NCBI GenBank assembly: GCA_010093485.1
Contig: MU001496.1
Location: 214,685 to 278,684, forward strand
Source of the DNA: Karstenula rhodostoma CBS 690.94
Taxonomy: Eukaryota; Ascomycota; Dothideomycetes; Pleosporales; Didymosphaeriaceae
Length of the DNA: 64,000 nucleotides
Direction: 5' to 3'
A program made the position numbers and the translations under genes. Under the pieces are notes generated by a model. The model saw only the letters and a list, made by a program, of their open reading frames with translations. It did no database searches and was not told the origin of the DNA. How positions within the stretch are numbered: the stretch's first letter is position 1; the number at the start of each line of letters is the position of its first letter. Shown here one piece after another: positions 8,673 to 42,692 of this stretch.

Positions 8673-11600
8673 ATGTCGTCCGGACTCGCCAGACAGCGCT
8701 CGGCGTCGCGAGGCTCCTCGGTGCGCTCAGATGTCCAGCACAAGCCGCCGACACCCAGCATCACTCCAGGAAGCGACGAATTTGCCTTTGAACCATGCGC
8801 CGCCACCGCCTCCTTCCTGCTCTACGCCCAGCGCAACGTCATTCTGTGCCTCCACCATGACACTCTGGCCGTCGAGAGAAGATTTACCCGCCATCGCGAA
8901 GACGTCTCGTGGATCTCTGCCGACACCGTCAGCGAGCGCGGGGCCGGTCGTCTGGTGGTGAGCTACGATGCGGGGAGCACCGCAATTGTGTGGGACCTTC
9001 TTACGGGCGATGAGGTGGCCCGTTTCGCATCGTACGATCAGATTCGGGTTGCGTCGTGGATGAGGAACGGCAATGTTGCTTTTGGTGAGAGAATCCCGTT
9101 TCAGTCGCGCTTTCCGCATTTTGCTGACCAGGAACCAGGTAATGCGCAGGGCAACATCATCCTTTTTGAACCCTCAACCTCCGAGCACATTTCTGCGAGG
9201 ACCATTTTCGACCCCATTACAGCACTGGCTCCTGCGGCGGACTGCAGGACGTTTGCAATTGGGTAAGTGTCTGAAATAGGGCCCACGTGCCCGGAACATT
9301 CATGCTAAGCGATTCTAGATATCTCAATGGCTCGATTCTGATTGCGACGTTACAGCCGTCATTTACCATTCTCCACACACTCACAACGCCCAGAGCCCCT
9401 TCCCCTATTGCAGGGCTTGCCTGGCACGGATCGTCTTCCAAGCAGAAGTCTGAAATGTTAGCCGCTCAGACCTCGGACGGTGACCTCAGAGTGTGGAGTA
9501 TCCCCAAGGTGGCCCACGGTGGCGACACACCTTGTGTGATTCGCATCCTCAACAAATCGGACCAAAGAGAACCCGGCCCCTGCTGGTTCGCGTGGTCGAA
9601 AAATGGCCGAATCATCCAATACACGGAAGGGTACGTATTCTAGATCGCTCACGCTGGGCTGCCCTGCATAGTGTGGGCGCCCGGCGCTTAACGAAATCAT
9701 GCTGACCACTCATCGCCCAATAGTCAAACAGCCTCTTGGGATGTGCGCACCAAGCGGGTCTCGTATGAGAGTGTGCCCACGGTCGACAATGTTGCCGCCA
9801 TTTGCAATTACGGCCCCACTGCTACACTCTTCACCATGAGTCGTAACTACGGTGTGCAGCAATATGACTTGAACCCTAGTGGAACGCCAACCATTGTTCA
9901 AAACGTCCAGCATCCTCCTGCTAACACTCCCCCTTCTCCTCCTCACTCCCTCGATGAACATGACAAGCCTGGTCAGACCCCACTGACTGCTCAACCCAAG
10001 TCAGTGGCACATGTGTTGATTGAATCTGAAAGCAGTGAAGGTGAGAGTCAGGCTGTACTCTCGCCGCTACAGAAGATTGCCCAAGAGATGGACCAGTTGG
10101 AGGAGGAGCGTCGTGACCGTGTCGGCCCCCTCAGTCCTGTCTCCAGTCGAGGTTCCCAAAGCTCTAGATCGTCTGGAAGCGGGCGTGGACCACGATACAA
10201 ATATGACAAGCCTACCAACACCAGGTCGTCGAAGAGCTCAGGTACTGTATTCTCGTCAGGCACCTCATCCATGATGGGTGCTTCTCGCGAGAGCATCTCT
10301 ATAAAGTCTACATCGTCGGCTACGTCATCCCGCTTCACTTCTTCCCATCTTCGCAAGGAAGTACTTCGGAGCCCCGATGAAGCCCAGCGTACCAAGCACA
10401 TGGACCTGTTTCCCTTCACCAAAGCTCGGCTTGGCGATGTTCCATACCGAAACTCTCAACTCGGGTCCGAAAGGTCTCCAGACGACCTCCGCCAGAACAT
10501 GCTTCGCATCGTGTTTGGTTGGGAGAATGATATCGAAGAGCTGATTCGTGACGAACGTGAGTACAACGCTCTACTAACAAAGTCGGACGCTAACAATCCT
10601 AGTTGCCCGCCATCCAGCTGGGTCAGCCGCGGCTGTTTTGCTTTCGAAGTGGCTTGGTGATGTTGGCGCCGACCTCATGGCATCCATGGTCGGGTCTGAG
10701 TCAATGACTTCCTCGGACTGGATGCTGCTTGCTCTCAGCTCCATGGGCCAGGGTACTCAGAAGAAAGTTGGTGAAACTTTCGTCCAGCGTCTTCTTGAAA
10801 AAGGCGACATTCACCCTGCCGTTGCTATCTTGCTTGGCTTAGGTGAGCACAACGATGCCGTCGAAGTATATGTATCTCGTAAATACTTCATGGAGGCCAT
10901 CTTACTTACATGTCTAATGTTCCCGACGGACTGGCAACGGCAATCTTTCCTCGTCAGAAAGTGGGGCGAGGCTGCAGTATCCCGTGGCCAAGCAGAGCTC
11001 GCTGTCAAATGCTTCTCTTGTATGGGCCTGGAGTCTTCCGAGCCTTGGTTTTCTCCGCGCGCTCAGGACGCAGTGTTCTCTGCACATAAGCAACATATCC
11101 TAGGCTCGCAACTCAGCCCGCCTCTTTCACCTCCGAGCGCTGGAGGAAGCCGGATCACAGCGAAGATGTCTTCCCTCAAACTCGTCACCGATTTCGGCAA
11201 AGGACCTCAACCGCAACAGATGATCCCGGAAGATGAGGAACAGACTCCAATGCACGTTGGCGCGACGCCTATCGCAGAGTCTGCCATGAGTCCCACTGGC
11301 GGTAGGAACCCATGGCTCGGCGCAAGCCTGAGATCAGCCCGTGCTCGAGACGGGTCCCGTGAGCCATCGTCGGCCAGGACTGCCACACCCGGCTCGTACA
11401 ACCGTAAGCGTCTTCCCTCTCAGTCTGGTACGGAACGATCCACAACAAACAACGAGTATCTTGCATCTCTTGTTGTACCGAACCGCGGACAACGTGACCA
11501 AGTTCCAAGTACTGCTATCGACAACATCGGACGCGAGACGGAAACGCTGCCGTTCTCAAGCCGTCGCGCAGCATCAACTGGTGCTAGCGAGAAGGAGATC

Positions 11601-13976
11601 GTTTTGACTGCTGCGACTTATGACCCAGCCAAACCCAAGGAGCAGCTGCCGTCTCCCGCTGCGGGGGTCTTCGACAACCTAATTAGTAAAGACGATGACC
11701 CTCGCAGCCATTCTCGCAGCCGCAACGTACAAGACTTGCACCTCGAGGTGGTAGAGACTATCATGGAGAACGGTCCTGACACTGGATACATCAATTTGAG
11801 CCCTCCTCTAACAGGGGCCAGCGTCAAGAGCGCAAAGGCCCGGGGCATTGATCAGTACATCAGCAGCTTGGACGAGGCCAACTACTATTCTCGGAATCGT
11901 GGAGACTCCAAACCTGAGCCTCGTCCGGGCTCACGCACCGAACCTCGTCCAGACAGCCGTACAGCTAGAACTCGCAGCCGAACCCGTGACGCCTCAGAAT
12001 CTCGAGGGCGCTCCGGTGCTCGCTATATCCGCCCTGCTAAACGCTCCCCTTCGTCGCCGGTACCGATGTCCCCTGAAGATGCTGGCATATACGCTCGGAC
12101 AAGTAAAGAGGCTGCAACCAACACGGAGAACTTTGAAGATGAACGATACTATAAGGTCGACGTCGGTTCTCCCATTGCCACTGAGTCGATGGGTAGCAGC
12201 CGAGCTCATCGGAGTCGCGCAAGAACTGGCGCAAGCAAAGTCAGATCATCATCCAAGACAACGCGTCGTGCAGAGTCACCAGAAGTACCACGCGTCAAGA
12301 GTAGAGGCGTCAGTCGTACCTCGAGCAAACGTCGCAAGGATGATCGCGGTCGTAGCTCCACCCGCGATGAGAGCTCCGCGAGGCGCTCCCCTGGGTCGCC
12401 CAAGCCAATGTACCGTGACGATGCAGCCGGCCCAGAATCCTACGAGCCAGTCCGTCCTCGTCAGCGAAGCACGAGTCGTCGCCCCGGAGAGCGTGCACAA
12501 AGCTCACGAAGGGAAATGTCACCGGACCGTCGCTTGCCTCGCGACCGCTCAATGAGCCGCAAAGCAGTTGCTGCTCTGCGAGAGACGAGCCGACCGCGTG
12601 CCACTATACGAGAAGCCTCACCAGATCGCGTGCCAGAACTACCTACCGAGAGCCGACCAGCTTCGCGACACTCCAATCTCTCTGGCCGCTCTGGACACCT
12701 CCGTCCTTCTACGCTTTCTAGGAAGGAACTGGCTGCTAAGGAGCTGGAAGAGCGCCGACTATCACTAGCTCGACGCCCTTCTGCGCCAATCATCCCCCAC
12801 CCTGGCGATTTGGCTCACCGTCCAGTGCCCGTTGAGCGCTCTCATACGGACGACGCAGAATCGTTCGCTACTATCTCCATGCACCGAGATCCCATTCAAC
12901 GTAGTCAAACTGCAGACCCTGAGATATCCAAGAAGTACTCGCCAACGAACAGAATGCACATGGGTGCTACTTCGACGATGTCCGTACCGATCGGCCTCCC
13001 AGCCACTCCACGAGCGATGCGTCATCCTCGGTACATGAGTTCTGATCCGCATGAAAGGGAAGGCATTCCGGCTGTTCCAACAATTCCGGATGCTATGGCT
13101 GCGGTTGCTCAGCAAAACCAGGTTGCTCACGATGATCTGGGCCCTCTCTTGCCTGCCACTACATTTGGTCAGCCAACTCTAGCTCGCTCGGCTTCCGCAC
13201 CTCCAGAGGACCTCTCGCCGATCAATATGGCTCCTAGAATCTCGCCTACTTATCCTTTGGGCAGACGTGGCTCGTTGGGTGGCAACCGTGGTCACTCAAG
13301 AAACACCTCATCAGACGGCATCATCGGGCCGAACTACAAGCGCGTTAGCCCTCCGCCCATTAGGGCCAGTATCGATGCGACTATTCATGAAAACCAGGTT
13401 GTGATCCTTGAATCGGACCCTGCCGCTCCCCCGCTACTCGCGGAACTACAGCACCTTGCAGGACCACCACCTCCACCTCCCGTGCCCCTGCAAATGAATT
13501 CCAGTCCAAAGAGCAGTATGCTCATCAACATTGCCATCGATGAAAACCCCACCGAGAAAATGCAGGAGGCTGTCTCTCCCCTGGCTGCCTCACCTCAGTC
13601 GCACCGACGTGGCCGGGGAAGTGTGAGCGAGAATATCGGCATGACTTTCAAGCGAGTCACCGAGAGGATGCGCAGCACTAGCCGCTCTCGCAACAAATCA
13701 CCACCGATGCGCGCAGAGATCTCTCCTTACGAGAGCGTCCCAGAGTTCTCTTTCTCAAGGACCGCGAGCGGGCGATCCCCTGTTGACAGCCACGGGAGCG
13801 AATACTTTGGCAATTTCTCAATTCCGCCTCCACCTCCACCACCCCAGCCTATGGAGCAGGTTGTGTCTCCGATCGAACAGTTCTCTGGTTACAAGCACCC
13901 CAAGGAAATCCGAGCGAACATGCCTCCCGATACACTTCAAGCTGGTGTTTACCAGCCGGAGACGCCCATGATCTAG
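8673..13976 (+). CDS. WD40 / Gemin5-like alpha-solenoid protein with long disordered tail
   Basis: Four exons: 8673-9262, 9319-9630, 9724-10556 and 10603-13976; introns of 56, 93 and 46 bp keep frame and give 1702 residues. Residues about 40-330 look like a WD40 propeller (segments such as AIVWDLLTGDEVARF and AASWDVRTKRVSYES). Residues about 600-735 form a helical repeat (FVQRLLEKGDIHPAVAILLG, then HNDAVEVYVSRKYFMEAILL) resembling the TPR region of Gemin5/WDR17-type proteins. The remaining ~950 residues are Ser/Arg/Pro-rich, with RS-like stretches, polyproline (PPPPPPVP) and many SP/TP sites, and are probably disordered and phosphorylated. Propeller plus solenoid suggests a scaffold in RNP or trafficking complexes, but the function is inferred. 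Gemin5 orthology is not established. Confidence 0.85.
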
Positions 13977-34610: not shown

Positions 34611-37600
34611 ATGGCGACCTTCTTAGAGAGCGCATACAGCTTGGTACGGCCCACAGCTGATGATGGTGGTGAAGCTCCCCGCTGACGAGCGGTCAACAGG
34701 TCCACCAGGACAACGCCGCCGATGTCCCTTCTCAGAATGATCTCAAGAACTCCTTGGAGAAGGGCTCGGACGAGCAGAAGATTGAGACCATGGTACGCCT
34801 CCCCTGCCGTTCACGATACCCCGCGCTGCAGGCTTCCGCTAATAAACCCACAGAAGAAGATCCTCTCCGTCATGCTCAACGGTGACCCCCAGACTGGCTT
34901 GCTCATGCATATAATACGATTCGTCATGCCCTCCAAGTCGAAGCCCTTGAAGAAGCTCATGTACTTCTTCTTTGAAGTATGTCCGAAATACGATGCACAG
35001 GGGAAGCTGCGTCAGGAATGGATCTTGGTCTGGTGGGCGCATACGAGGACCCTGATACCCAAAGGAAGATGCTGACCGGCGACAGCAACGCCATTCGATT
35101 CGACTTGCAAGCACCTAACGAATACGTGCGGGGAAACACGTTGCGCTTCGTGTATGGACCCAGCCCAGTGAGATTGTATGCTGCTGACAATACACAGGAC
35201 GAAATTGCGGGATGCCGAGCTTGTAGAACCATTACTTCGTAGGTCTATCAGTCCAGCTGCATATTCGCTGTGCTTACAATACTTCCAGAACCCGTACGGC
35301 AATGTCTCACACATAGGCACGCATACGTGCGAAAGAACGCAACTTTCGCGATCGCATCGATCTTCACACATCTACCTGAACTTCTTCCAGACGCTCCTGA
35401 TCTCCTCGTCACGTTCCTCGACGACGAAAACGATCCGACCTGCAAGCGCAACGCTTTCGCAGCTCTCGTTTCGATCAGCCACGAAAAGGCCTTCGAGTAC
35501 TTGAGTACAGTCTTCGACTCGATCCCCAACCACGATGAGCTGGTTTTGCTCGCCGAATTGGAGTTCATCCGGAAAGACGCCCTGAGCAACCCATCGAACA
35601 AGGCGCGGTATTTGCGATTGATCTTTGATCTGCTGGAGTCCAGCGTGTCTACCGTCATCTACGAAGCTGCGCACGCGCTCACAACGCTCACTTCCAACCC
35701 CGTAGCCGTCAAGGCAGCCGCAGGAAAGTTTGTGGAACTGGCAGTCAGGGAGCCCGACAACAACGTCAAGCTCATCGTTCTGGAGCGCGTAGACCAACTG
35801 CGCCAGAAGCATGAGGGTGTGCTGGACGATCTCACCATGGAGATCCTCCGTGTCTTGTCTAGCCCAGACTTGGATGTGCGGAAAAAGGCGCTCCACATTG
35901 CATTGGAAATGGTTACAAGCCGCAATGTCGAAGAGGTGGTTCTGTTGCTCAAGAAGGAACTGGTGAAGACTGTCGACGAACAATACGAGAAGAACACCGA
36001 GTATCGGTCACTGCTCATCTCTTCCATCCACCAGTCGGCTATCAAGTTCCCTGAAGTTGCTGCGAGCGTGGTCGGTTCGCTCATGGATTTCATCTCCGAT
36101 GTCAGCAGCAACGCATCGGCCGTGGATGTTATCTCTTTTGTAAAAGAAGTCGTGGAGCGTTTCCCAGATCTCAGGGCCTCCATCGTCCAACGACTTGTCA
36201 CAACTTTGGGCGAGGTTCGCGCAGGAAAGGTTTACCGCGGCGTTCTTTGGATCATTGGAGAGTTCTCACTTGAAGCCAAGGATATCCGTGACGCATGGCG
36301 AGGTATTCGCGCATCACTCGGGGAGATTCCTATCCTGAGTTCCGAACAGAGGCTACTGGACGAGGCATCAGAAGGCAAGGAGCCTATCGAGCAGGTCAAC
36401 GGACACGCAAAACCTGCGGCGCCCTCTGGGTCTCGCAAAGTGCTTGCAGACGGAACGTACGCCACCGAAAGTGCCCTTACATCTTCTGCCGCTGCCAAGG
36501 CGAAACTCGAAGCCGTCAAAAACTCCCAGAAGCCACCGCTGCGCCAGCTGATTCTCGACGGCGACTACTATCTTGCGGCTGTGTTGTCCAGCACACTTAC
36601 CAAACTTGTCATGCGCATCTCGGAGATCTCACAAGACACCACACAAACCAACCGTCTAAGAGCAGAAGCTATGCTCATCATGATATCCATCATTCGTGTT
36701 GGTCAGTCTCAGTTTGTGAAGACGTTTATTGACGAGGACTCCGTCGACCGCATCATGTCTTGCGTGCGGTCACTTTCCGAGTTTGCGCAAAAGAAGGAGC
36801 TTGAGGCCGTTTACCTCGAAGATACGCGGAAGTCTTTCAGGATCATGGTCCAAGCGGAGGAAAAGAAGCGGGCAGCGAAGGAAGCATCCGAGAAAGCGAA
36901 GTCTGCGATCAATGTCGATGACTCGTTCTCGATAAGACAGCTCAAGAAAAAGGATGGAGATGGCCTGGACGAGGTCGCAGAAGACCTTGAAAGAGCGACT
37001 GGCGGTGAAACAGCTACAGAAGAGCTCACATCAAAGCTTAGCCGGGTGCAGCAACTCACAGGCTTTTCGGATCCGGTCTACGCTGAAGCCTATATCAAGG
37101 TTCACCAATTCGACATCGTTCTGGACGTACTGCTAGTCAACCAAACAACCGAAACTCTCCAAAACCTTACTGTCGAGTTTGCCACCCTTGGCGACCTCAA
37201 GGTTGTCGAACGACCGCCCACGCAGAACGTTGGCCCACACGACTTTATCAACCTTCAAGCTACCATCAAGGTCTCTTCGACTGACACCGGCGTCATCTTT
37301 GGTAACATAATATACGAGGGGTAAGTCCACTTCACTTTACTTCATGTAGCGCGCTAATGCTAACAATCTGCAGTGAAAAGGGCGTTGACTCCAACGTCGT
37401 GATCCTCAACGACGTACATATCGACATCATGGACTACATCAAGCCAGCCCATTGCACGGAGACTCAATTCCGCACGATGTGGACTGAATTCGAGTGGGAG
37501 AACAAGGTCAACATCAATTCCAAAGCCAAAACACTACGCGACTTCCTCAAGCAGCTTATGGCGTCAACCAACATGTCTTGCCTGACACCAGAGGCAAGTA

Positions 37601-37839
37601 TGAAGGGCGACTGCCAATTTTTGTCTGCGAATTTGTATGCTAGGAGTGTGTTCGGTGAGTCTACAATCCTTTGGAAAAGAGAGCATATGTACTAATTTGG
37701 AACAGGTGAGGATGCGCTGGCCAACTTAAGCATCGAACAGGAGGGTAGCAACGGACCGATCACGGGTTTCGTGAGGATTCGGTCGAGAAGCCAGGGTTTG
37801 GCGCTTAGCTTGGGCAGCTTGAAGGGGTTGAATAAATGA
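34611..37839 (+). CDS. SEC26: coatomer subunit beta (beta-COP)
   Basis: Eight exons: 34611-34643, 34700-34792, 34854-35032, 35086-35151, 35198-35238, 35289-37320, 37374-37654 and 37706-37839, giving 952 residues, the usual beta-COP length. The start ([16 protein letters not shown]), the HEAT-repeat adaptin-like trunk ([40 protein letters not shown]) and the C-terminal appendage region ([38 protein letters not shown]) are all present. It is a core COPI coat subunit that drives Golgi-to-ER and intra-Golgi retrograde transport, recruited to membranes by Arf1. Introns cluster at the 5' end, leaving a 2-kb central exon. A lysine-rich charged segment (about 550-600) is the linker between trunk and appendage. 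Confidence 0.96.
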
Positions 37840-40365: not shown

Positions 40366-42004
40366 ATGGCAGACGGTGTTGGAGAAGATGCAATTGATCC
40401 CTTTCGGGACCCTTCGATGGCAGGCAACGCAATAAATGCCGCCCGAGCCGACGTACCCGCCACGCTCGCTGTAGGCAGGGATGCCTCGCTGACGCTGGGG
40501 ACAGATGCCTTGATTGTGCTCGGTACGTATAGCTGGCTCGAGGAGGTTCGGGACGCAAACGCTGAGAGGCCCTAGATGAGCTCCTGGAAAGCAAAGGCGC
40601 AGGTTGCTGCGGCATCTCCCTGGGAGGAGGCAGTGAGAAGCATGCCTCACACGGCGCGTAGCCAGCCATTGACACCGAGCAGATAACAAGACAACGCGCT
40701 CGATCCCTTTCTACAACGTCCTCTGGGCCAAAACCGCAGAAGACGGCGAGGTCATCATCCACCACGCGCACGTCGTGTCCAAGCAGGTCGTGCGGCCGCA
40801 GATCATCAGCTACAAGCTCGAAAAGTCGGACAACGACCTAGCGGCGGCATGGGTGGAGAGGCTGTTGGAGAAGGCATACGGTGCATCGCAGCGACAGAAG
40901 CGCATCAAGGTGTTGATCAACCCCTTCGGTGGGCAGGGCAAGGCCTCCCAGATGTACCATAAGCAAATCGCGCCTATATTCGCCGCTGCGCGCTGTGAAC
41001 TCGACGTCGAATCGACCACGCACAACGGCCACGGTATCGAGATAGCGCAGAACCTGGACATTGAGAAGTTTGACGTGGTAGCTTGCTGCTCCGGCGACGG
41101 CATCCCGCACGAGGTCTGGAACGGATTTGGTAAGAGGGAGGATGCGCGGCGCGCTCTGGTCAAGGTCGCAGTCGCCCAGCTTCCCTGCGGATCCGGGAAC
41201 GCCCTGTGTCTGAACAGCAACGGTACCGACAGCCCGAGTCTTGCCGCTCTAGCCGTCGTGAAGGGTCTTCGTACGCCCCTGGGTCTCGCTTCTGTGACCC
41301 AGGGTGACCGCCGCATGCTCTCCTTTCTCTCGCAATCCGCTGGCATTGTCGCTGAAACCGACCTTGCAACCGAGCACCTACGCTGGATGGGTAGCGCCCG
41401 CTTCACGTACGGCTTTCTTGTTCGACTGTTGAAAAAAGCCGTCTACCCTGCGGATATAGCCATCAAGGTCGAATATGACAACAAAGAGGCCGTCCGGGCA
41501 GCCTACCGTGCAGAGGCCGCAAACCCCACTCGTACTCATGATGAGCGCACCCTACCAGCCCCGGGCCAAGCATGCGCCATTCCGCCCCTAAAGTACGGAA
41601 CTATCAATGACCCATTGCCGGATGGTTGGGAGTTGGTACCGCATGATCAACTCGGCAACTTCTATGCAGGCAACCTCGCCTACATGTCTCCGGATGCCAA
41701 TTTCTTTCCCGCCGCTCTACCTGACGACGGCTGTCTTGACTTGATTCGTATCAAGGGTACTTTGCCACGGACGAAATCGATTGCCACTCTACTTGCCATA
41801 GAGCAGCACACGTTCTTTGATTTACCGCATGTCGATTATCAGAAGATCAGCGCGTACAGGATTATACCCAAGAATCAAAAGGAAGGGTATATCAGTGTTG
41901 ATGGGGAGAGGATTCCGTTTCAGCCGTTCCAGGTTGAGATGCACAAGGAGCTGGGGACGGTGTTGAGTAAGAACGGCCATCTGTTTGAGGCGAGGGGCGT
42001 GTAG
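40366..42004 (+). CDS. LCB4: sphingoid long-chain-base kinase (Lcb4/Lcb5, sphingosine kinase family)
   Basis: Three exons: 40366-40522, 40576-40632 and 40683-42004, giving 511 residues. Diacylglycerol-kinase-type catalytic domain about 120-270: INPFGGQGKASQMY (nucleotide-binding loop), CCSGDGIPHEVWNGF (the SGDG motif), LPCGSGNALCLN, and later LPDDGCLDLIRIKG and ISVDGERIPFQPFQVEMH. It phosphorylates dihydrosphingosine and phytosphingosine on the 1-hydroxyl, controlling long-chain-base-phosphate levels in heat stress and lipid turnover. The segment GISLGGGNNKTTRSIPFYNV spans the second junction and supports the GAGCAG acceptor. SGDGI replaces the usual SGDGL, a conservative change. Assignment to LCB4 rather than LCB5 is arbitrary. 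Confidence 0.92.
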
Positions 42005-42494: not shown

Positions 42495-42619
42495 AGCTGA
42501 GTGGCGCAGCGGAAGCGCGCCGGGCTCATAAGTAAGTTGAACCACCTGCTGGCTTTAGAAATACATATACTAACAATTAATCAGCCCGGAGGACCTACGA
42601 TCGAAACGTAGCTCAGCTA
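42495..42619 (+). tRNA. tRNA-iMet: initiator tRNA-Met (CAT) with a 53-nt mRNA-type intron
   Basis: Exons 42495-42531 and 42585-42619 join to a 72-nt cloverleaf: acceptor stem AGCTGAG/CTCAGCT with A discriminator, D-stem GCGC/GCGC, anticodon stem CCGGG/CCCGG, loop CTCATAA with anticodon CAT at 42527-42529, and T-stem CTACG/CGTAG. Initiator hallmarks are present: A1-T72 pair, three consecutive G-C pairs in the anticodon stem and the AATCGAAA-type T-loop (GATCGAAAC). The A box (TGGCGCAGCGG) and B box are intact, and a T run follows. The intron has GTAAGT, TACTAAC and CAG. Removing it GT-to-AG leaves A38, the standard loop; a cut at the normal tRNA-endonuclease position 37/38 would leave G at position 38. 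Confidence 0.93.
42532..42584 (+). other. GT-AG intron within the tRNA-iMet gene
   Basis: 53 nt, the modal size of coding introns here. Donor GTAAGT at 42532-42537, branch-type TACTAAC at 42568-42574 and acceptor CAG at 42582-42584. The last base of the branch motif is 10 nt from the end of the intron. The third-last base before a canonical endonuclease 3' cut would be T, which does not pair with C32 of the loop, so the anticodon-intron pair expected of a canonical tRNA intron is not evident. Confidence 0.8.
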
Positions 42620-42626
42620 TGAGTTC

Positions 42627-42638
42627 TTTTTTTTTTTT
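42627..42638 (+). terminator. Pol III T-run terminator of tRNA-iMet
   Basis: Twelve consecutive T residues starting 8 nt after the tRNA 3' end, the usual RNA polymerase III stop signal. Confidence 0.9.
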
Positions 42639-42663
42639 GGCTTTTTTGGCTCCCCATCTTTTA

Positions 42664-42692
42664 CAGGGGTTCGAACCTCGGTCGAACCCTTG
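42664..42692. repeat. hairpin with B-box-like sequence
   Basis: Eleven-base arms (42664-42674 and 42682-42692, one G-T wobble) flank a 7-nt loop. The sequence GGTTCGAACC resembles a tRNA T-arm/B box on both strands, 26 nt beyond the tRNA terminator. No A box or cloverleaf accompanies it; it may be a tRNA fragment relic. Confidence 0.5.

What the first reader, a model, noticed from the sequence alone, without database searches (positions are those of the whole stretch)
42495..42619. Initiator tRNA-Met gene apparently interrupted by a spliceosomal-type intron
The 53-nt insert has all three mRNA-intron signals: GTAAGT, TACTAAC and CAG. It has the length of coding introns in this window. GT-to-AG excision restores the universal CTCATAA loop and a perfect 72-nt initiator tRNA. 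A canonical endonuclease cut between positions 37 and 38 would leave G38, and the pairing to C32 expected of a canonical tRNA intron is not evident. mRNA-type introns are known in another Pol III product, U6 snRNA of fission yeast and other fungi, so spliceosomal access to a Pol III transcript has precedent. A tRNA carrying one would be new to me. If real, translation initiation would depend on the spliceosome for this tRNA copy.
Basis: partly seen in the sequence, partly recalled or inferred. Interest (0 to 1): 0.88.

Follow-up and report, generated by a model that had tools for sequence, protein, structure and literature searches.

The report
mRNA-type introns inside fungal tRNA genes
In one filamentous fungus, tRNA genes, starting with an initiator-methionine tRNA, are interrupted by introns that look like those of messenger RNAs, which implies that the spliceosome, and not only the tRNA-splicing enzyme, is needed to make some tRNAs.

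Summary
Window 42495-42619 is an initiator tRNA-Met gene with a 53-nt GTAAGT...TACTAAC...CAG insert after position 38. GT-to-AG removal gives a 72-mer identical to an intact copy elsewhere in the genome; a cut at 37/38 would leave G38. Of three iMet genes found, a second has a different 49-nt GTACGT...CACTAAC...CAG insert in its variable loop. Nine more tRNA genes carry such inserts in the D-arm region: Leu-AAG 4 of 4 found, Leu-CAG 2 of 2, Ala-CGC 2 of 2, Glu-TTC 1 of 2 seen. All 11 inserts are 48-53 nt, GT...YAG, with CTAA placing its A 10-12 nt from the acceptor, like six homology-supported coding introns of the window. Four Leu copies share one insertion site: outside the insert they are 90-96% identical, while insert interiors score as shuffled sequence does (two of six pairs at the top of that range). 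The Leu genes also carry ordinary anticodon introns. The 5S and U6 genes found are uninterrupted. The fungus is, or is very near, Karstenula rhodostoma (Pleosporales). Best reading: U2-type spliceosomal introns in nuclear tRNA genes. Ten literature searches found no earlier report. No RNA evidence was available.

The parts
42495..42531 (+). iMet exon 1 (nt 1-37, to position 38; loop CTCATAA)
   Evidence: identical to nt 1-37 of the intact copy
42502..42513 (+). A-box-like stretch TGGCGCAGCGGA
   Evidence: sequence; motif recalled
42532..42584 (+). 53-nt GT-AG insert, proposed U2-type spliceosomal intron
42532..42537 (+). donor GTAAGT
42568..42574 (+). branch-site-like TACTAAC (probable branch A 42573)
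42582..42584 (+). acceptor CAG
42585..42619 (+). iMet exon 2 (nt 38-72)
   Evidence: identical to nt 38-72 of the intact copy
42599..42607 (+). B-box-like GATCGAAAC (initiator T-loop)
   Evidence: sequence; same string in all three iMet copies
42627..42638 (+). run of 12 T, probable Pol III terminator

Best explanation
The insert is a U2-type spliceosomal intron in a nuclear tRNA gene, one of at least eleven in this genome. Proposed path: Pol III transcribes the interrupted gene from its internal boxes to the T run (inferred); U1/U6 recognise the GTRNG donor, U2 the CTAA branch site, and the spliceosome excises GT-to-AG as a lariat and joins the exons, giving a normal cloverleaf (inferred from sequence). 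In the Leu and Ala-CGC genes the ordinary anticodon intron is then, or before, removed by the Sen endonuclease and Trl1 ligase, so one precursor needs two splicing machines (inferred). Shown: gene anatomy, signals, empty-site copies, divergence pattern. Not shown: transcription, splicing, lariats.
For: All 11 of 11 inserts are 48-53 nt, start GT, end YAG, have G at donor position 5, and have a CTAA whose second A lies 10-12 nt from the acceptor. Six homology-supported coding introns of the window are 46-61 nt with A 10-12 nt from the acceptor by the same count. GT-AG removal restores exactly the intact iMet copy (both inserts) and the D-arm sequence of an intact Glu-TTC copy. Seven distinct positions lie in the D-arm region, next to the anticodon loop and in the variable loop. 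Leu-AAG (4 of 4), Leu-CAG (2 of 2) and Ala-CGC (2 of 2) had no uninterrupted copy in whole-genome BLAST, so removal should be needed for CUU/CUC decoding (wobble rules recalled). Four same-site Leu copies: 0.90-0.96 identity outside the insert against 0.43-0.63 inside, shuffled means 0.47-0.54. Pol III-type T runs follow 9 of 11 genes; in the other two only 45 and 9 nt of flank were held. Spliceosomal introns in another fungal small RNA, U3, have the same signals and are widespread in Pezizomycotina (PMC5832005, section 11 read); fission-yeast U6 has an mRNA-type intron (PMC10484740, passages).
Against: No RNA evidence. One iMet copy and one Glu-TTC copy are intact, so those interrupted copies could be dispensable or silent. 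In Leu-CAG C17 and Glu-TTC C5 the insert splits the A box. In some register that restores the same tRNA, 7 of 11 inserts have a possible anticodon-intron-like pair and 3 of 11 reach 3 of 4 central-helix pairs. A genome pattern of branch site + AG + B box shows no excess over its reversed control (56 against 63). Among the Leu insert interiors, 2 of 6 pairs (0.61, 0.63) reach the top of the shuffled range. U6 and 5S genes found have no such inserts. No relative's genome could be examined.
Confidence: 0.88

Rival explanations
1. The inserts are tRNA-type introns cut by the Sen endonuclease (bulge-helix-bulge or relaxed forms) at ectopic places, as in the red alga Cyanidioschyzon merolae and in archaea; the GT-AG look is incidental.
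For: Ectopic endonuclease introns exist in C. merolae and nucleomorphs (PMC4090602 section 5; PMC3978253 passages). Eukaryotic Sen does not strictly need anticodon-intron pairing (same review section). 3 of 11 inserts reach 3 of 4 central-helix pairs in an allowed register.
Against: GT...AG with a placed CTAA in 11 of 11. The anticodon-intron pair is met in 39 of 44 canonical-intron rows of this genome (4 of the 44 are misparsed rows, all 4 counted as met) but in 4 of 11 inserts at the GT-AG register; no insert has 4 of 4 central pairs in any allowed register. The central-helix measure is weak: only 14 of 44 canonical rows reach 3 of 4. Fungal Sen uses a ruler to 37/38 (PMC4090602 section 5).
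Confidence: 0.06
2. The interrupted genes are decaying pseudogenes into which ordinary introns or other DNA inserted, never processed.
For: Intact copies of iMet and Glu-TTC exist. Insertions in D or T arms of eukaryotic tRNA genes are usually taken for pseudogenes (PMC4090602 section 5).
Against: Exons of both interrupted iMet copies are identical to the intact copy; no uninterrupted Leu-AAG, Leu-CAG or Ala-CGC was found; donor, branch site and acceptor are kept in four Leu copies whose insert interiors have diverged.
Confidence: 0.05
3. Recent spread of an introner-like mobile element that carries splice signals and happened to hit tRNA genes.
For: Introner-like elements are known in Dothideomycetes (PMC4457414, abstract start in listing). 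Seven insertion positions suggest repeated gain.
Against: Inserts at one site are as unlike each other as shuffled sequence in 4 of 6 pairs, so no recent common element is visible. This concerns origin, not removal.
Confidence: 0.05

Closest known systems
Spliceosomal introns of fungal U3 snoRNA genes (PMC5832005)
   Same: GT-AG, RCTRAY branch site, in a small non-coding RNA gene, common in Pezizomycotina, some copies with and some without
   Different: U3 is a snoRNA; average length there 92 nt; here the host is tRNA
mRNA-type intron of fission-yeast U6 snRNA (PMC10484740, passages)
   Same: spliceosomal intron in a Pol III transcript
   Different: one snRNA, near its catalytic bases; here many tRNA genes, while the two U6 genes found lack introns
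Canonical nuclear tRNA introns cut by Sen at 37/38
   Same: intron in a nuclear tRNA gene; also present in the same Leu and Ala genes
   Different: other positions, spliceosomal signals, 48-53 nt
Ectopic BHB tRNA introns of Cyanidioschyzon merolae, nucleomorphs and Crenarchaeota
   Same: D-arm and variable-loop positions, several introns per gene
   Different: cut sites there are, where defined, BHB motifs; here GT-AG with branch site
Spliceosomal introns in ascomycete rDNA (recalled; a 1993 title on an mRNA intron in 18S rDNA was seen in a reference list)
   Same: mRNA-type intron in a structural RNA
   Different: Pol I rRNA, not tRNA

Membership tests
U2-type spliceosomal intron | GT donor and AG acceptor | tested here: met
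   11 of 11; YAG in 11 of 11
U2-type spliceosomal intron | branch site at a set distance | tested here: met
   CTAA in 11 of 11, A 10-12 nt from acceptor; CTAAY in 10, CTAAG in 1
U2-type spliceosomal intron | length of the organism's coding introns | tested here: met
   48-53 nt against 46-61 nt in six homology-supported introns
U2-type spliceosomal intron | interior free to diverge, signals kept | tested here: met
   four same-site Leu inserts; 2 of 6 pairs at the top of the shuffled range
U2-type spliceosomal intron | removal as a lariat by the spliceosome | not testable with these tools
   no RNA data
Canonical Sen-type tRNA intron | position 37/38 | tested here: not met
   iMet C5 is after 38 (37/38 would give G38 and differ from the intact copy); the other ten lie elsewhere
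Canonical Sen-type tRNA intron | anticodon-intron (A-I) pair | tested here: not met
Ectopic BHB tRNA intron | 4-bp central helix between bulged cut sites | tested here: inconclusive
   never 4 of 4; 3 of 4 in 3 of 11 in an allowed register; canonical controls reach 3 of 4 in only 14 of 44
Introner-like element | high sequence similarity among copies | tested here: not met
   for six Leu pairs and one Ala pair (0.34); introns genome-wide not compared

The most novel reading that the evidence does not exclude
Nuclear tRNA genes can carry a second class of intron, removed by the spliceosome. In this fungus tRNA-Leu-AAG and Leu-CAG precursors each need both the spliceosome and the Sen endonuclease, so decoding of CUU/CUC codons, and hence translation as a whole, depends directly on the spliceosome acting on Pol III transcripts.
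Probability: 0.78. Interest if true: 0.94.

Novelty: new variant of a known kind. Interest (0 to 1): 0.9.

Why it matters
In the review read here (PMC4090602 section 5) eukaryotic nuclear tRNA introns are the business of a protein endonuclease, nearly always at 37/38. If these introns are removed by the spliceosome, tRNA supply is tied to mRNA splicing, uncapped Pol III transcripts are regular spliceosome substrates, and tRNA finders that look only at 37/38 miss or misname genes: the RF00005 search returned neither the C8 iMet copy nor any of the six interrupted Leu genes, and ARAGORN called one Leu gene a Val. The system offers natural paired copies, with and without intron, to test how the spliceosome and Sen share one small RNA.

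Tried and rejected
Pseudogene reading: rejected as main account because exons are identical and the Leu and Ala-CGC families have no uninterrupted copy in the BLAST searches. Endonuclease reading: A-I pair and central helix tested; the helix test discriminates poorly. MFE folds of precursors gave no consistent bulge-helix-bulge and also misfolded several spliced tRNAs, so I give them no weight. Avoidance of TTTT in inserts: 0 of 11, but shuffles give 0 in 32%, so no evidence. A window-wide count of intron-like motifs (61 on both strands) is only modestly above shuffles of the + strand (14-32 per strand). The branch-AG-B-box genome pattern gave no excess (56 against 63 control), although 7 of the known genes are in it. 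5S: 27 of 27 matches are full-length 120-mers; U6: 2 of 2 uninterrupted; these searches score only the best candidates (47 each) and could miss split copies. Relatives: viral contigs and genome contigs patterns found nothing, which says little because fungi are hardly held there. 95 of 181 B-box sites were never read, among them C16:314441 and C11:1924832, which also match the pattern.

Literature: ten searches; long result lists were seen only in part (20 of 175, 20 of 38). No bioRxiv and few subscription papers are held, so a report there would be missed.

Full report
What is there. Window 42495-42619 holds an initiator tRNA-Met gene split by 53 nt. The exons, joined GT-to-AG, are the same 72 nt as an uninterrupted gene at G000:C2:516155-516226. 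The initiator marks are the A1-T72 pair, the three G-C pairs next to the loop and the T-loop ATCGAAA (family knowledge). The insert starts GTAAGT, has TACTAAC and ends CAG. A cut at 37/38 would give G38 and the third-last insert base would be T facing C32, no pair (sequence). The gene lies between a sphingoid long-chain-base kinase gene (40366-42004, located with protein P0121) and further coding sequence, and is followed by 12 T.

The organism. The kinase is 100% identical over the 443-aa query to the protein of Karstenula rhodostoma CBS 690.94; coatomer beta is 97% identical to Paraconiothyrium brasiliense and a Gem-associated-type protein 94% to Paraphaeosphaeria sporulosa. The source is therefore K. 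rhodostoma or something very near it (Didymosphaeriaceae, Pleosporales). The genome has 44.3 Mb in 29 contigs.

Other iMet genes. BLAST of the 72-mer finds three loci. C2 is intact. C8:1141275-1141395 carries, after nt 45 in the variable loop, a 49-nt insert GTACGT...CACTAAC...ATACAG with no other resemblance. Exons of all three are identical.

Other tRNA genes. ARAGORN, an acceptor/T-stem scan and BLAST on fetched loci show the same kind of insert in tRNA-Leu-AAG at C1, C5, C7 and C10, tRNA-Leu-CAG at C9 and C17, tRNA-Ala-CGC at C12 and C9, and tRNA-Glu-TTC at C5:310 kb. My cloverleaf fit puts the inserts at about 10/11, 13/14, 18/19 (four genes), 24/25 and 25/26 (two genes), besides 38/39 and 46/47 of the iMet genes. 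The last scan lists 72 candidate structures in the loci held. I judged four to be chance. Eleven, all those above 112 nt apart from these four, carry the GT-AG insert, and 57 are 112 nt or shorter. For Leu-AAG, Leu-CAG and Ala-CGC no uninterrupted copy appears in the whole-genome BLAST; one exists for iMet (C2) and for Glu-TTC (L068). Copies of Glu-TTC were not searched by BLAST.

Signals. In 11 of 11 inserts: 48-53 nt, GT, G at position 5, YAG, and CTAA with its second A 10-12 nt from the acceptor, counting that A. In 10 the motif is CTAAY, in Leu-CAG C17 it is CTAAG. Six coding introns placed by protein homology in three window genes have lengths 53, 50, 56, 46, 61 and 53 and the same spacing. 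The four Leu genes with the insert at 18/19 are 0.90-0.96 identical without it, while the parts between donor and branch site are 0.43-0.63 identical, against shuffled means of 0.47-0.54; two of six pairs lie at the top of the shuffled range. The two Ala inserts are 0.34 identical there. So what is conserved is what a spliceosome reads.

Is it an endonuclease intron? In this genome the canonical introns show the anticodon-intron pair in 39 of 44 rows (four rows are misparsed), the inserts in 4 of 11 at the GT-AG register and 1 of 11 one base either side. If every register that restores the same tRNA is allowed, 7 of 11 have one and 3 of 11 reach 3 of 4 central-helix pairs, none 4 of 4; iMet C5 has neither in its only register. 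The helix measure is weak, since only 14 of 44 canonical rows reach 3 of 4. Together with the signals and positions this disfavours, but does not by itself exclude, the endonuclease. The Leu genes additionally carry a canonical intron that pairs with the anticodon (TTAAG with CTTAA, sequence), so they hold both kinds side by side.

Limits. There are no RNA data. Two inserts split the A box (Leu-CAG C17, Glu C5). An intact iMet gene means initiation does not hang on this intron. U6 (2) and 5S (27) matches are uninterrupted, but such searches score only the best candidates, and the RF00005 search missed the C8 iMet and the six Leu genes. 95 of 181 perfect B-box sites were not read. Relatives could not be searched.

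What is known. A review of tRNA introns places eukaryotic nuclear introns at 37/38 with rare ectopic ones in algae and nucleomorphs, takes arm insertions for pseudogenes, and does not contain the word-start 'spliceosom' (PMC4090602; passages and section 5). tRNAscan-SE 2.0 treats noncanonical introns as archaeal (PMC8450103, passages). Spliceosomal introns are documented in fungal U3 (PMC5832005, section 11) and fission-yeast U6 (PMC10484740, passages). Ten searches listed no paper that I could recognise as reporting spliceosomal introns in nuclear tRNA genes; the library holds no preprints.

Verdict. The insert is a spliceosomal-type intron in a tRNA gene, and this fungus has at least eleven. 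The intron itself is of an ordinary kind; the host RNA is new as far as these searches go. I call it a new variant of a known kind, with high interest and a clear experiment.

Noticed in passing
L117-L120, L045 (downstream of the Leu genes): The 3' trailers of the Leu genes share CTATCGTCCGCTC and, varying by copy, a matching GAGCGG or GAGTGG, which could form a hairpin before the T run; Leu-CAG C17 has a different GAGCTC hairpin.
   Followed up: partly
window 42663-42682: A B-box-like palindrome ACAGGGGTTCGAACCTCGGT about 45 nt downstream of the iMet gene.
   Followed up: no
G000:C9:1051739-1054187: Five perfect B-box strings within 2.5 kb; stretch not read.
   Followed up: no
G000:C16:314368-314450 and C11:1924833-1924890: Unread B-box sites that also match the branch-site + AG pattern, possible further interrupted tRNA genes or chance.
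   Followed up: no
G000:C3:1527927-1528462: Two U6 genes about 330 bp apart on opposite strands.
   Followed up: no
genome: Most tRNA genes seen carry short canonical introns (44 of 54 distinct candidate sequences parsed with one of 6 nt or more, four of them misparsed), as in Cryptococcus.
   Followed up: partly
window 40366-42004 (+), 34700-37836 (+), 8673-13976 (+): Sphingoid long-chain-base kinase, coatomer beta and Gem-associated-type protein genes.
   Followed up: partly
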